This document shows, piece by piece, positions 846-5,484 of a stretch of 36,891 nt of DNA. Each line of letters starts with the position of its first letter. Positions within the stretch are counted from its first letter, which is position 1. Under the pieces are notes generated by a model that saw only the letters and a program-made list of their open reading frames with translations, did no database searches and was not told the DNA's origin. This stretch comes from Ignavibacteriales bacterium (GTDB lineage Bacteria; Bacteroidota; Ignavibacteria; Ignavibacteriales; Melioribacteraceae): assembly GCA_016936095.1 (NCBI GenBank), contig JAFGPR010000048.1:1-36891 (forward strand), written 5' to 3'. The position numbers were made by a program, and so were the translations under genes.

Positions 846-1292
846 ATGAAAAAGGTAATTTTAGTTGTAATATTTTTCTTATTTACTTCTTATCTGTTTA
901 GCAATGTAAATTGCAGCAGTTCAAATCAAATACAAGAAGAAAAAATAAAGAATATGGTAACAAAATTTCTTGATTACTGCGATATAAAAGATTATGAAAG
1001 TGCGGGTAAATATTTACTTTACAATGGTGAAAATGCAAACAGAAAGTATAAAGAAATTTTTAATTATAGTAATACCGATGAAAAAAAAGAAGTCGAAAGA
1101 ATATGTAAAAAAGTAAATGCAATGTTGATTATTAGTGACTCATACACGAATGGTTCAATTACTCAAGAAACAAAAGAAGGAATTACCTGGCAGGTACTCG
1201 AAGTATTCTTTAAAAGTGGTGAGCAGGTTTTAAGACAAACATTTTACATCTTAGAAATTGCTAATAATTACTATATTGGAATTATTAAATAA
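846..1292 (+). CDS. Small secreted protein of unknown function
   Basis: A 148-residue protein with an N-terminal signal peptide (MKKVILVVIFFLF, then a polar region SNVNCSSS). The Cys there is not in a good lipobox, because the residues before it are VN. It could be a lipoprotein, but ordinary secretion is as likely. The remainder, with KFLDYCDIKDYESAGKYLL, WQVLEVFFKSG and a C-terminal IANNYYIGII, recalls the small NTF2-like or DUF4878-type folds found in periplasmic proteins. I would not assign a family from this. The ATG at 846 is preceded by GAAGGTGATGAA, a usable ribosome binding site, and an ATG 14 bases upstream runs straight into a stop. Only 14 bases separate it from ispH, so the two are probably cotranscribed. 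Confidence 0.75.
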   Translation: MKKVILVVIFFLFTSYLFSNVNCSSSNQIQEEKIKNMVTKFLDYCDIKDYESAGKYLLYNGENANRKYKEIFNYSNTDEKKEVERICKKVNAMLIISDSYTNGSITQETKEGITWQVLEVFFKSGEQVLRQTFYILEIANNYYIGIIK

Positions 1293-1306: not shown

Positions 1307-2524
1307 ATGAAAATATCCAATATACTAAGTTCATATCGTAGTGGTTTTATATCGAAAATAAAACAGATATCTTCAAGCAACGCTACCAAAAAAAATTTTA
1401 AAGCAATTAATCTAGATTTTGGTAGCGTTCGCTTTTATCTAGCAAGATATTTTGGTTTTTGTTACGGTGTCGAAAATGCAATTGAAATAGCTTACAGAAC
1501 AATTGCTGAAAATCCTTCAAGACGTATTTTCCTTCTCAGTGAAATGATCCACAATCCATTAGTCAATCAAGAACTTAGTAATAAAAACGTTCAATTCATT
1601 TTTGATAGTTCAGGTAATCAGAAAATATCTTGGGATTCAATAACATCGGATGATATTATTATTATACCTGCCTTTGGAACAAGTACAGAAATTGAGAAAA
1701 AAATTATTGAAAAGGGGATTGACATACAAAAATATAATACGACTTGTCCATTTGTACAAAAAGTCTGGAAAAGAGCTTTCTCGCTAGGTGAAAATAACTT
1801 TACTGTTATGATTCACGGCAAACATCTACACGAGGAAACAAAAGCAACATTTTCAAGAAGTGAGCAGAATGCACCTTCATTTGTCGTTCGTGATATCGAA
1901 GAAGTAAGAATTGTTTCAAAAATTATCTTAAGTGAAATTGATAAACAGGAATTTTACAGAATATTTGAAGGTAAGCACTCAATAGGTTTTGATGTTAATA
2001 AAGATCTTGAAAGAATCGGAGTAGTTAATCAGACAACAATGTTATCATCTGAAACACAAGCAATCGCAGAAGAACTTAAAAATACAATGATAAAAAAATA
2101 TGGACTTGAAAATTTACACGATCATTTTGCTGACACACGAGATACATTATGTTATGCAACGAATAATAATCAACAAGCAACTGAAGCACTGTTGAATGAA
2201 AAAGCAGATTTTGCAATTGTTGTTGGTGGTTATAATAGTTCTAATACTACTCATCTTGTGGAAATGTTAGAGAAAAAATTCATTACATATTTCATTGATT
2301 CAGCTGAAAAAATTTTATCAACAAACCAGATTAAGAATTTTGATATTCATCTTAAAAATGAAAAAATAACGGATAATTTTATTCCATCAGATAAAAAGCC
2401 GACAATTATTCTTACGAGTGGTGCTTCCTGTCCTGATTCTGAGGTTGAGAATGTAATTTCCAAACTGCTTTCATTTTTCCCTCAATCCCGCAGTTTTAAT
2501 GAAGTTTTAAGTGATTTTCGGTAA
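1307..2524 (+). CDS. ispH: 4-hydroxy-3-methylbut-2-enyl diphosphate reductase, long form
   Basis: Last enzyme of the MEP (non-mevalonate) pathway. It reduces HMBPP to isopentenyl and dimethylallyl diphosphate using a [4Fe-4S] cluster in the cytosol. The three cluster cysteines expected for IspH are visible: C52 in GFCYGVENA, C147 in NTTCPFVQK and C282 in DTLCYATNN. The HGKHLHEET segment (170-178) matches the active-site His/Glu region of the long class, and SGASCPD at 371-377 is the conserved C-terminal motif. At 405 residues it belongs to the longer class, with an N-terminal extension of about 40 residues, rather than the roughly 316-residue E. coli type. The next in-frame Met is beyond the first cluster Cys, so the start at 1307 is the only sensible one, although its ribosome binding site is weak. 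Confidence 0.96.
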   Translation: MKISNILSSYRSGFISKIKQISSSNATKKNFKAINLDFGSVRFYLARYFGFCYGVENAIEIAYRTIAENPSRRIFLLSEMIHNPLVNQELSNKNVQFIFDSSGNQKISWDSITSDDIIIIPAFGTSTEIEKKIIEKGIDIQKYNTTCPFVQKVWKRAFSLGENNFTVMIHGKHLHEETKATFSRSEQNAPSFVVRDIEEVRIVSKIILSEIDKQEFYRIFEGKHSIGFDVNKDLERIGVVNQTTMLSSETQAIAEELKNTMIKKYGLENLHDHFADTRDTLCYATNNNQQATEALLNEKADFAIVVGGYNSSNTTHLVEMLEKKFITYFIDSAEKILSTNQIKNFDIHLKNEKITDNFIPSDKKPTIILTSGASCPDSEVENVISKLLSFFPQSRSFNEVLSDFR

Positions 2525-2586
2525 AAATATTTTTATTTTTACTTAAAATTTCGTATAATTGCACGTTAAATTTTTAGGAGTTATAA

Positions 2587-2751
2587 ATGGCAAAAACACA
2601 ATCCTTTGCAGACAAAGCAAAAGGAAAAAAGAAAGCTGATTTTATTTGTGTTAAGGTTATTAAAACAATGAAGAGTGATAAAGGTACTTATTCCTTCAAA
2701 GAATCAATTGAAAAAATACCTGATATCAGTCAAGTTAATACACTTAAATAA
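2587..2751 (+). CDS. Small basic DUF4295-like protein, possible ribosomal protein
   Basis: A 54-residue basic protein. It has a good Shine-Dalgarno (AGGAG at 2576-2580, 6 bases before the ATG) and ends directly before a strong terminator, so it is a real gene. The N-terminus is Lys-rich (FADKAKGKKKAD). It is followed by VIKTMKSDKGTYSFKESI, which closely resembles the core of the Bacteroidetes DUF4295 family as I remember it (K-[MT]-x-KS-x-K-x-G-x-Y-[ST]-F-x-E). That small protein usually sits beside the L28/L33 genes, and I recall it being described as ribosomal protein bL38 in a Flavobacterium ribosome structure. Here it is 62 bases after ispH, away from any ribosomal gene. TATAATTG at 2554-2561 is a possible -7 box. 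The family link is an inference from memory. Confidence 0.75.
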   Translation: MAKTQSFADKAKGKKKADFICVKVIKTMKSDKGTYSFKESIEKIPDISQVNTLK

Positions 2752-2764
2752 TTAAGTTTTTCAG

Positions 2765-2797
2765 AAAAATCCCCTATTTCTTTAGGGGATTTTTTTT
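2765..2797 (+). terminator. Rho-independent terminator after the DUF4295-like gene
   Basis: A 10-bp stem (AAAAATCCCCTA arm, 2765-2776, with its complement at 2783-2794), a 6-base loop and a T tract running to 2797. It sits 13 bases after the stop codon and ends the ispH/small-protein transcription unit. It touches the stop codon of the minus-strand NifU remnant. Confidence 0.9.
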
Positions 2798-3024
2798 ATT
2801 TTGAAATCACATCTATATCTTCTGATACTTCTTTCTTTAAAAGATTTTCTATTGCAACTAATGTTCCTCTGATTGCACGTGGGCAACTTCCGCATGCACA
2901 CTGATAATGAATTTTTAAGACATTATTTTTCAATTCAAGTATTTCTAATCCAACACCATCTTGTTATAACACTTGTTTAACTCTACTGTTAATTATTTCT
3001 TTAATTTCAAACGTTTTATTTCAT
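2796..3024 (-). pseudogene. Decayed NifU C-terminal-domain gene
   Basis: Reading leftwards, the frame ending at 2796-2798 (TAA) encodes a NifU C-terminal (Fe-S scaffold) domain. The order is FEIKEIINSRVKQVL, a stop, [18 protein letters not shown], then [17 protein letters not shown] and NLLKKEV. The CxxC motif of the family (CGSC) is intact. Two lesions prevent expression. An in-frame TAA lies at 2964-2966, just before the QDG segment. A TGA at 3021-3023 lies upstream with no start codon between it and the domain. An ATG at 3022-3024 is one base out of frame, which suggests an indel at the N-terminus. No ATG, GTG or TTG follows the internal stop early enough to rescue the domain. A sequencing error is possible, but two independent defects make decay more likely. 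Confidence 0.85.
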
Positions 3025-3100: not shown

Positions 3101-3778
3101 CTATTTTCGATTATCAATTAATAACACAAATTCACCTTTTAATTTTTCAAGTAAAACTTCATCAAGTATTTTACCGACGCTACCACGAAAAATTTTTTCA
3201 CTTTTCATTGTCAAATCAAATGCTAAAACAACTTGTTGTTTTTCAGAAAATATTTTTTTTATATCAGATAATAATACAGCCAAACGATATGGAGTGTCTA
3301 ATATTATTAATACTTCGTTTATTTTTTTCAATCTTAATAATTCTTGTATTCGTATATCTTTTTTTTGTGAAAGCCAGCCGTAATAATAGAATTTTTCAAT
3401 TTCTAATCCCGAGGAAGTGATTGCAGGAATAAGTGAGTTTGCACCTGGTAAAGGAATAATTTGAATATTTTCTACTATACATAGGTTGGTTAAATAATGT
3501 CCGGGATCAGAGAAAAGGGGACTGCCACAATCAGAAATTAATCCAATAATCTTTCCATTTTTCAAATGTCTCAAAATTTCTGGAGCAACTTCTTTTTCAT
3601 TATGCTCATTCAAGGAAATGAGCTCTTTCTGAATGTTGAATTTGGAAAGTAATCTTCGTGCTTCTTTTAGTTCTTCACAGACTATTAAGTCAACATCTTT
3701 TAATGTTGATATTGAACGTAAGGTAATATCTTCAGAATTTCCAATCGGAGTAGGGATTAAAAATAATTTTCCTATCAT
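3101..3778 (-). CDS. SAM-dependent methyltransferase, RsmI-like (tetrapyrrole methylase family)
   Basis: A member of the tetrapyrrole-methylase-like fold. RsmI itself 2'-O-methylates C1402 of 16S rRNA. Visible family motifs are LIPTPIGNSEDITLRS at residues 7-22, GLISDCGSPLFSDPG (RsmI: GLISDAGTPLISDPG) and IIPLPGANSLIPAI. RsmI normally reads CEDTR in the first loop, but here it is CEELKEARRLL. The protein is also short at 225 residues, lacking the C-terminal tail of standard RsmI (about 280). This fits a second, shorter subfamily known in Bacteroidetes, so the exact substrate is uncertain and I give no symbol. It starts 14 bases after the proS stop and is probably in one operon with proS, so both products would serve translation. 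Confidence 0.85.
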   Translation of the reverse strand: MIGKLFLIPTPIGNSEDITLRSISTLKDVDLIVCEELKEARRLLSKFNIQKELISLNEHNEKEVAPEILRHLKNGKIIGLISDCGSPLFSDPGHYLTNLCIVENIQIIPLPGANSLIPAITSSGLEIEKFYYYGWLSQKKDIRIQELLRLKKINEVLIILDTPYRLAVLLSDIKKIFSEKQQVVLAFDLTMKSEKIFRGSVGKILDEVLLEKLKGEFVLLIDNRK

Positions 3779-3792
3779 TAAAATTCAGTATA

Positions 3793-5484
3793 TTATTTTT
3801 TTAAAAGTTCTGCAATTTTATTCTTTAACTCATCCAACTTGATCTTAATTCTTTCACCAGTTTCCCTGATTTTCACTTCAACAGATTGTTCTTTAAGATT
3901 TTTTTCACCAACAATAATCTGAATTGGTATACCAATTAAATCGGCGTCATTGAATTTTACTCCCGCCGTTTCATCTAACCTGTCATCATATAAAATATCA
4001 TAACCTTTTTGAGTTAATTCTTTGTAGATATTTTCTGCTGCATTTTTTGTCTCATTATTTTTTAAATTCAATCCGACTAAATGCAAATCGAAAGGAGATA
4101 AATGCTCATTCCAAAGAATTCCTTTCTCATCATAATTCTGCTCAATGAAACATGCTAAAATTCTTTCAACTCCAATTCCATAACTTCCCATTACAATCGG
4201 GTGATCTTGTCCGTGTTCATCAAGATACCTGACTCCTAGCGATTCTGAATATTTTGTACCTAATTTGAAAATATGTCCTAACTCAATCGCTTTGAATACT
4301 TCCAATTTACTATTACATCTTCCACATTTTTCACCTGACTGAGCAAATCGTAAATCAGCGTACTCTATATTTTTTACATCACGAGTAAAATCAATTCCAC
4401 CAATATGATAATCATTTTTATTTGCACCGCTAAAAAGGTTATTTCTATCTTTTAATTTTAAATCAGCAATAATTCTCATTTTAATTCCGACTGGCCCAAT
4501 TGAACCTGCATCTGCACCTGTGATTTCTTTTAGTTCATCTGGATGAGCAGGACGAACAGTTCCACCAAGGAATGAATTTAGTTTGTTTTCATTTACTTCT
4601 TCATTGCCTTGCATTAAAATTAAAACTGGAACATTATCGTGGATATATATTCTGCTTTTTGCACATTGTATTTCATTGATTTTTAAGAATTCACATAACT
4701 CATCAATACTTTTTACATTTGGTGTAGAAATTTCATAAATCTCTTTTGATTTTTCTTCTCTTTTAATTGGTTCTATTATTGATGATGCAACTTCAACATT
4801 TGCAGCATAACCACATTTTGAACAGTAAGCAACAGTATCTTCCCCTGCATCTGATTTAAGCATAAACTCTTCGGATTTACTTCCTCCCATTGCTCCACTT
4901 GAAGCACCAACGATAAAATATTTCAACCCACATCTAACAAAAATTTTTCTGTATGCTTGGTCGTGTGCTTCGTAAGATTTATCTAAACCATCAAAATCAA
5001 CATCAAAAGAGTACGCATCTTTCATAAGGAATTGTCTTCCACGAATTACTCCACTACGAGGTCTTGGTTCATTTCGGAATTTTGTCTGTATCTGATACCA
5101 TATTTGAGGTAATTCCTTATAAGATTTCAAAGCACCTTTAGCGTGAAATGCCATAATCTCTTCGTGCGTTGGAGCAAGAACATAATCACGATTTTTTATA
5201 TGAAAAAGAGTATCGCCAAATGCTTCAACTCGTCCTGTCTGTTCCCAAATTTCCTTTGGATTTAATGCGGGAAGGTGAAACTCCTGTCCACCTATTGCAT
5301 TCATTTCTTCACGAATAACATCAGAGATTTTTCTAATTAATTTGTAACCGATTGGTAAGAATGAATAAATTCCTGCAGATAACATTCTTGTTAATCCGGC
5401 ACGAATCATTAAGATATGACTAGGAATAACAGCATCACCTGGAACTTCTTTCAATGTTGGAATAAATGTTTTACTAAATCGCAT
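3793..5484 (-). CDS. proS: Prolyl-tRNA synthetase
   Basis: Class II aminoacyl-tRNA synthetase that charges tRNA-Pro, of the bacterial type with an inserted editing domain. The N-terminal catalytic part holds APTHEE (104-109) and the motif 2 region RNEPRPRSGVIRGRQF with LMKDAYSF (137-160). The insertion domain that removes alanine mischarged onto tRNA-Pro spans roughly 225-400. It begins after CSKCGYAANVEVA and is followed by CGRCNSKLEV, a metal-site-like Cys pair common to this type. Motif 3 is GSYGIGVERILACFIEQ, followed by the anticodon-binding domain. The length of 563 residues is normal. It is the first gene of a likely two-gene unit with the downstream methyltransferase, driven by the promoter at 5514-5544. 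Confidence 0.97.
   Translation of the reverse strand: MRFSKTFIPTLKEVPGDAVIPSHILMIRAGLTRMLSAGIYSFLPIGYKLIRKISDVIREEMNAIGGQEFHLPALNPKEIWEQTGRVEAFGDTLFHIKNRDYVLAPTHEEIMAFHAKGALKSYKELPQIWYQIQTKFRNEPRPRSGVIRGRQFLMKDAYSFDVDFDGLDKSYEAHDQAYRKIFVRCGLKYFIVGASSGAMGGSKSEEFMLKSDAGEDTVAYCSKCGYAANVEVASSIIEPIKREEKSKEIYEISTPNVKSIDELCEFLKINEIQCAKSRIYIHDNVPVLILMQGNEEVNENKLNSFLGGTVRPAHPDELKEITGADAGSIGPVGIKMRIIADLKLKDRNNLFSGANKNDYHIGGIDFTRDVKNIEYADLRFAQSGEKCGRCNSKLEVFKAIELGHIFKLGTKYSESLGVRYLDEHGQDHPIVMGSYGIGVERILACFIEQNYDEKGILWNEHLSPFDLHLVGLNLKNNETKNAAENIYKELTQKGYDILYDDRLDETAGVKFNDADLIGIPIQIIVGEKNLKEQSVEVKIRETGERIKIKLDELKNKIAELLKK

What the first reader, a model, noticed from the sequence alone, without database searches (positions are those of the whole stretch)
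2587..2751. Isolated DUF4295-like (possible bL38) gene outside the ribosomal protein cluster
The 54-residue product carries KTMKSDKGTYSFKESI, close to the core of the Bacteroidetes small protein DUF4295 as I remember it, which I recall being named ribosomal protein bL38. In Bacteroidetes it normally lies with rpmB and rpmG. Here it sits alone behind ispH with its own strong terminator and ribosome binding site. Genes this short are easily missed by annotation. If right, it extends the family to another lineage and shows a moved ribosomal gene.
Basis: partly seen in the sequence, partly recalled or inferred. Interest (0 to 1): 0.6.

Follow-up and report, generated by a model that had tools for sequence, protein, structure and literature searches.

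The report
Solitary ribosomal protein bL38 gene
The short gene is a real, conserved gene for the small ribosomal protein bL38 in an Ignavibacteriales bacterium; related bacteria keep it beside other ribosomal genes, this group keeps it on its own, and some cousins carry a version with four cysteines that looks like a zinc-binding form.

Summary
The ORF at 2587-2751 is a genuine gene. Its 54-residue product matches Pfam DUF4295 in the core only (26.3 bits, cut-off 27). It has full-length orthologues in 42 of 42 sampled genomes of its order. dN/dS against its closest relative is about 0.11. A bridged profile finds one copy in 289 of 296 genomes of the phylum, and the same profile hits 7jil chain 4, "50S ribosomal protein L38" (E 1.4e-9, full length). 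Ribosome binding in this lineage is inferred, not shown.

The solitary position is real but not peculiar to this genome: 80 of 80 Ignavibacteriales loci have none of bL28, bL31, bL32, bL33 or bS18 within the flanks held (up to 5 kb). Elsewhere in the phylum bL38 lies in at least three ribosomal contexts: bL28-bL33-bL38, bL38-bL31-bS18 and bL38-bL28. Which arrangement is oldest is unresolved.

Unexpectedly, several sister families carry one bL38 copy with four invariant cysteines (CxxC...CKCNEK). It looks like a zinc-ribbon form, replaced elsewhere by cysteine-free forms, as in bL31, bL33 and bL36. I found no description of it in the databases and papers searched.

The parts
2587..2751 (+). bL38 (DUF4295) gene, 54 aa
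   Evidence: PF14128 E 6.8e-6; 27-sequence alignment A1 with 12 invariant columns; bridged profile A2 matches 7jil_4 '50S ribosomal protein L38' E 1.4e-9 and 9i5t_15 E 8.9e-13; dN/dS about 0.11
2576..2580 (+). Shine-Dalgarno AGGAG, 6 nt before the ATG
   Evidence: read directly; an SD core is present in 80 of 80 bL38 genes (relatives and window) against 87 of 286 neighbouring genes
2554..2561 (+). probable promoter -10/-7 element TATAATTG
   Evidence: read directly; one mismatch to TAnnTTTG, which lies 11-80 nt upstream of 54 of 79 bL38 genes (8% in shuffles). Inferred, not shown
2763..2796 (+). intrinsic terminator of the bL38 transcript
   Evidence: 14-pair hairpin plus T run, -18.2 kcal/mol, z -3.5
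1307..2524 (+). ispH (LytB), gene upstream; this pairing is seen only in the genus (window, L031, L217)
   Evidence: Pfam PF02401 E 3.3e-64; gene clusters
2805..3008 (-). decayed nfu (NifU-like) remnant; an nfu gene lies downstream of bL38 in 47 of 80 relatives
   Evidence: tblastn E 7.8e-19 with an in-frame stop; Pfam Nfu_N and NifU on the intact relative; clusters
3101..3778 (-). rsmI-like methyltransferase, conserved downstream neighbour
   Evidence: Pfam TP_methylase E 3.7e-23; cluster 4
3793..5484 (-). proS, conserved downstream neighbour
   Evidence: Pfam tRNA-synt_2b, tRNA_edit, HGTP_anticodon; cluster 6

Best explanation
The gene encodes ribosomal protein bL38, a 54-residue basic protein of the large ribosomal subunit. 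It is a stable single-copy gene of Ignavibacteriales, probably transcribed from its own promoter and ended by its own terminator, with a strong Shine-Dalgarno site. By analogy with solved ribosomes, its beta-hairpin would pack beside uL6, uL14 and 23S rRNA helices H95/H97 near the sarcin-ricin loop and stabilise the region where translation GTPases bind. Shown here: homology, conservation, gene contexts, signals. Inferred: transcript boundaries, binding to the ribosome, the site and the effect.
For: PF14128 match and 27/27 orthologues. Profile-profile Ignavibacteriales v Bacteroidia E 4e-7, prob 92.7, against E 0.13-0.15, prob <1 for bL31 and bL33 controls. Bridged profile hits 7jil_4 'L38' over its whole length; the Flavobacterium-like copy L189 hits it at E 1.4e-23. 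Single copy in 289/296 genomes. Neighbours in the phylum are bL28/bL33, bL31/bS18 or bL28. Binding-site description for bL38: PMC10618245. The predicted fold is a helix, a beta-hairpin and a helix, pLDDT 84.
Against: The direct Pfam match covers 22 residues and is 0.7 bits under the cut-off. Foldseek with the model did not retrieve bL38 (no hit at E<=0.001); a 54-residue hairpin at pTM 0.47 makes this weak evidence either way. No protein-level data for this lineage.
Confidence: 0.9

Rival explanations
1. A homologue of bL38 that has left the ribosome in Ignavibacteriales and now works elsewhere, for example as an assembly or regulatory RNA-binding protein.
For: No ribosomal neighbours in 80 of 80 loci; the C-terminal end differs from that of Bacteroidia (one search aligns residues 20-48 only).
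Against: Present once in every sampled genome of the order. Nine columns are invariant over 60 sequences. Close relatives with the same MAKxQxF N-terminus keep it in ribosomal operons. bL28 of this genome is also solitary with the same kind of promoter and SD.
Confidence: 0.07
2. Chance ORF, or an unrelated lysine-rich small protein that resembles DUF4295 by composition.
For: Sub-threshold Pfam score; short and lysine-rich.
Against: dN/dS about 0.11, conserved start and length in all relatives, and no profile similarity to other lysine-rich ribosomal proteins.
Confidence: 0.01
3. The gene was recently moved out of a ribosomal cluster in this genome.
For: ispH upstream is found only in this genus.
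Against: All 80 Ignavibacteriales loci lack ribosomal neighbours. The downstream nfu-rsmI-proS side is shared with about two dozen relatives. In single-contig genomes bL33 is 0.45 to 1.8 Mb away.
Confidence: 0.03

Closest known systems
bL38 of Flavobacterium johnsoniae (PDB 7jil chain 4; Pfam PF14128 DUF4295)
   Same: Same core K-[VI]-I-K-x-[VM]-K-S-x-x-G-x-Y-x-F-x-E, same MAK start, same size
   Different: N-terminal QxFADKAKxK motif and C-terminal [IV]xKVTxxK tail; one residue fewer before the hairpin glycine; solitary gene with SD instead of bL28-bL33-bL38
bL38 of Borrelia burgdorferi (bb0162; PMC10618245)
   Same: Occupies the corresponding site on 50S, per the paper
   Different: The paper could not find it with the F. 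johnsoniae sequence, and it is displaced by 14 A. Our profiles do not hit it in the PDB at E<=10, so homology is untested
Zinc and non-zinc forms of small ribosomal proteins (bL31, bL33, bL36; from general knowledge)
   Same: One lineage has a CxxC...CxC form and another a cysteine-free form of the same protein
   Different: For bL38 the two forms replace each other between lineages; no genome searched carried both

Membership tests
bL38 / DUF4295 (PF14128) | Match to the family profile over the curated cut-off | tested here: inconclusive
   26.3 bits against 27 for the window protein. 8 of 58 genomes (the window's and its relatives) pass the cut-off, and all 27 aligned orthologues match at E<=0.1
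bL38 / DUF4295 (PF14128) | Homology to a protein seen in the 50S bL38 site | tested here: met
   Bridged profile v 7jil_4 'L38' E 1.4e-9 and 9i5t_15 E 8.9e-13, full length; Ignavibacteriales-only profile v 9i5t_15 E 0.003; hhalign E 4e-7
bL38 / DUF4295 (PF14128) | Universal, single copy | tested here: met
   42/42 relatives of the order; 289/296 of the phylum with one match each, 5 of the 7 misses hit by PF14128
bL38 / DUF4295 (PF14128) | Gene order bL28-bL33-bL38 | tested here: not met
   Not met in the window or 80 relatives. The order holds in Bacteroidia and some related classes only, so I do not treat it as defining
bL38 / DUF4295 (PF14128) | Fold match to solved bL38 | tested here: inconclusive
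   Helix, beta-hairpin, helix at pLDDT 84; Foldseek has no significant match to anything
bL38 / DUF4295 (PF14128) | Present in 50S subunits of this lineage | not testable with these tools
   Needs cryo-EM or mass spectrometry

The most novel reading that the evidence does not exclude
bL38 is a phylum-wide ribosomal protein whose older form was a zinc ribbon (CPxC...CKCNEK, 63-67 aa). It lost its cysteines, perhaps more than once, giving the Ignavibacteriales, Chlorobia-like and Bacteroidia forms, and so joins bL31, bL33 and bL36 as a protein with zinc and non-zinc versions. The present evidence shows the two forms are homologous and mutually exclusive. Zinc binding, ribosome binding and the direction of change are not shown.
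Probability: 0.6. Interest if true: 0.65.

Novelty: new member of a known kind. Interest (0 to 1): 0.45.

Why it matters
bL38 was identified only recently as a ribosomal protein, and its Pfam model detects it in about half of the genomes of the phylum (159/296) where a bridged profile finds it in 289/296. It is thus probably under-annotated outside Bacteroidia. A single ancestral protein of the phylum, with changing operon partners and a likely zinc-ribbon form, offers a test of how ribosomal proteins are gained and change metal dependence. It also gives a sequence route to ask whether the Borrelia bL38 is a true homologue.

Tried and rejected
Foldseek of the AlphaFold2 model against PDB gave only insignificant matches. 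phmmer of the single window protein against PDB gave one chance hit, eukaryotic L30 at E 0.49. NCBIfam has no model that matches it. I could not test the Borrelia bL38 protein: its sequence was not at hand and no profile hit it. The F. johnsoniae ribosome paper is not held. bL33 was not found in the window genome, but that genome is 78% complete and bL33 is present in 53 of the 58 genomes searched, so I draw nothing from it. A negative control run with hhalign inside Python printed nothing and was replaced.

Full report
Observation. It starts 62 bases after ispH, has AGGAG six bases before the ATG and a strong terminator behind it. The single-protein Pfam match is DUF4295 at E 6.8e-6, residues 20-41, just under the cut-off. 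The gene is under purifying selection: dN 0.064, dS 0.553 against the 87% identical copy in L031, Ignavibacteriales bacterium Zod_Metabat.179. The window genome holds one copy.

Lineage. Nearly all of the 80 loci returned from named genomes have Ignavibacteria, Ignavibacteriales, Melioribacteraceae or broader Bacteroidetes/Chlorobiota labels, a few only 'bacterium'. The tool places the window genome with them. The other genome of the same genus (G001) has the gene in the same place behind ispH.

The family. 27 aligned members (the window's and 26 from the order) are 53-55 residues long with 12 invariant columns, and every one matches DUF4295. In the class, 183 of 245 genomes match the order's profile, with all 42 other members of the order positive. 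Sequences from other classes form a continuous series towards Bacteroidia. A profile of that series (A2) finds one copy in 289 of 296 genomes of the phylum, where Pfam's own model finds 159. Five of the seven misses are hit by Pfam's model, so two remain. Caution: A2 was built from members of the same phylum, though most of the 296 genomes gave no seed.

Identity with bL38. The Flavobacterium-like member L189 matches 7jil chain 4, named 50S ribosomal protein L38, at E 1.4e-23. A2 matches that chain at E 1.4e-9 and 9i5t chain 15 at E 8.9e-13, full length; 9i5t also contains bL28, so it is a ribosome or large subunit. Order-only against Bacteroidia-only profiles align at E 4e-7, while bL33 and bL31 give E 0.15 and 0.13.

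Gene contexts. I scored bL28, bL31, bL32, bL33 and bS18 around bL38 in all loci held. Bacteroidia and several other classes: bL33, with bL28 found in most, directly upstream. Thirteen sampled families of the window's own class (f6, f7, f9, f11, f12, f17, f18, f51, f56, f57, f59, f60, f61): bL31 and bS18 downstream, sometimes followed by bL28. Families f15 and f16, and one member of f10: bL28 directly downstream, with bL32-plsX upstream in f15. Ignavibacteriales: none in 80 of 80 loci, within flanks of at most 5 kb (shorter where the contig ends). In single-contig genomes bL33 lies 0.45 Mb (G035), 0.76 Mb (G009), 0.88 Mb (G048), 1.2 Mb (G046) and about 1.8 Mb (G049) from bL38 (the shorter way round a circle assumed). 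Three unlike ribosomal partnerships support a ribosomal function more strongly than one inherited operon would. The window's downstream side (nfu remnant, rsmI, proS) is shared with about two dozen relatives, so the locus is old within the order.

Expression signals. All 80 bL38 genes examined have an SD core against 30% of neighbouring genes (start calls of neighbours are mechanical, so that figure is a lower bound), and 54 of 79 have TAnnTTTG upstream against 8% in shuffles. bL28 of the window's genome has the same kind of SD and upstream motif and no ribosomal neighbour on its short contig. This fits a strongly expressed single-gene unit; it is not proof of one.

A four-cysteine form. Families f4, f5, f8, f10 (part), f14, f52, f53, f55 and the more distant f19 carry a 63-67 residue version with C-x2-C and CKCNEK; in 14 sequences all four cysteines are invariant. 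The order's profile, which contains none of them, hits 11 of the 14 at E<0.001 and aligns with theirs at E 1e-17. Conversely the four-cysteine profile finds the known bL38 loci of Ignavibacteriales, such as G009, G037 and G046, at E 3e-4 to 2e-5. 52 of 197 genomes of the class match it at E<1e-22, one copy each; f58 is among them by score only, its cysteines were not read. No genome had both forms. f15 and f16 look intermediate, with a decayed CxxC segment (TCPDTGKE, DPETGKE). No Pfam or NCBIfam family describes the form above cut-off. It has no ribosomal neighbour in the loci seen, so its place in the ribosome rests on homology alone.

Mechanism. For bL38 of F. johnsoniae and Borrelia, PMC10618245 describes a shared site on the 50S subunit, and for the Borrelia protein contacts with H95 (which bears the sarcin-ricin loop), H97, uL6 and uL14. 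The predicted helix-hairpin-helix of the window protein, rich in lysine, suits such an RNA-binding staple. That it stabilises the GTPase-binding region is inference.

Noticed in passing
L208, L211, L223, L227-L232, L234-L238: Four-cysteine (CPxC...CKCNEK) form of bL38 in several sister families, mostly between a GAF-domain-like gene and phosphopentomutase- or EutN-like genes (neighbours named by eye).
   Followed up: partly
window 2805-3008 (-): Decayed nfu gene: the NifU-like domain remains with an in-frame stop and the N-terminal half is gone; relatives have an nfu gene in the same place.
   Followed up: partly
L179 4834-5151: One family (f40) has bL38 starting 4 bases after bL33 and lacking the usual N-terminal motif (49 aa), a shortened form.
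   Followed up: no
L031-L110, upstream of bL38: TAnnTTTG promoter-like motif, resembling the Bacteroidetes type as I recall it, together with strong Shine-Dalgarno sites: both signals in one lineage.
   Followed up: partly
window 846-1292: 148-aa ORF with an N-terminal signal-like stretch and no Pfam family, conserved upstream of ispH in the genus (L031).
   Followed up: no
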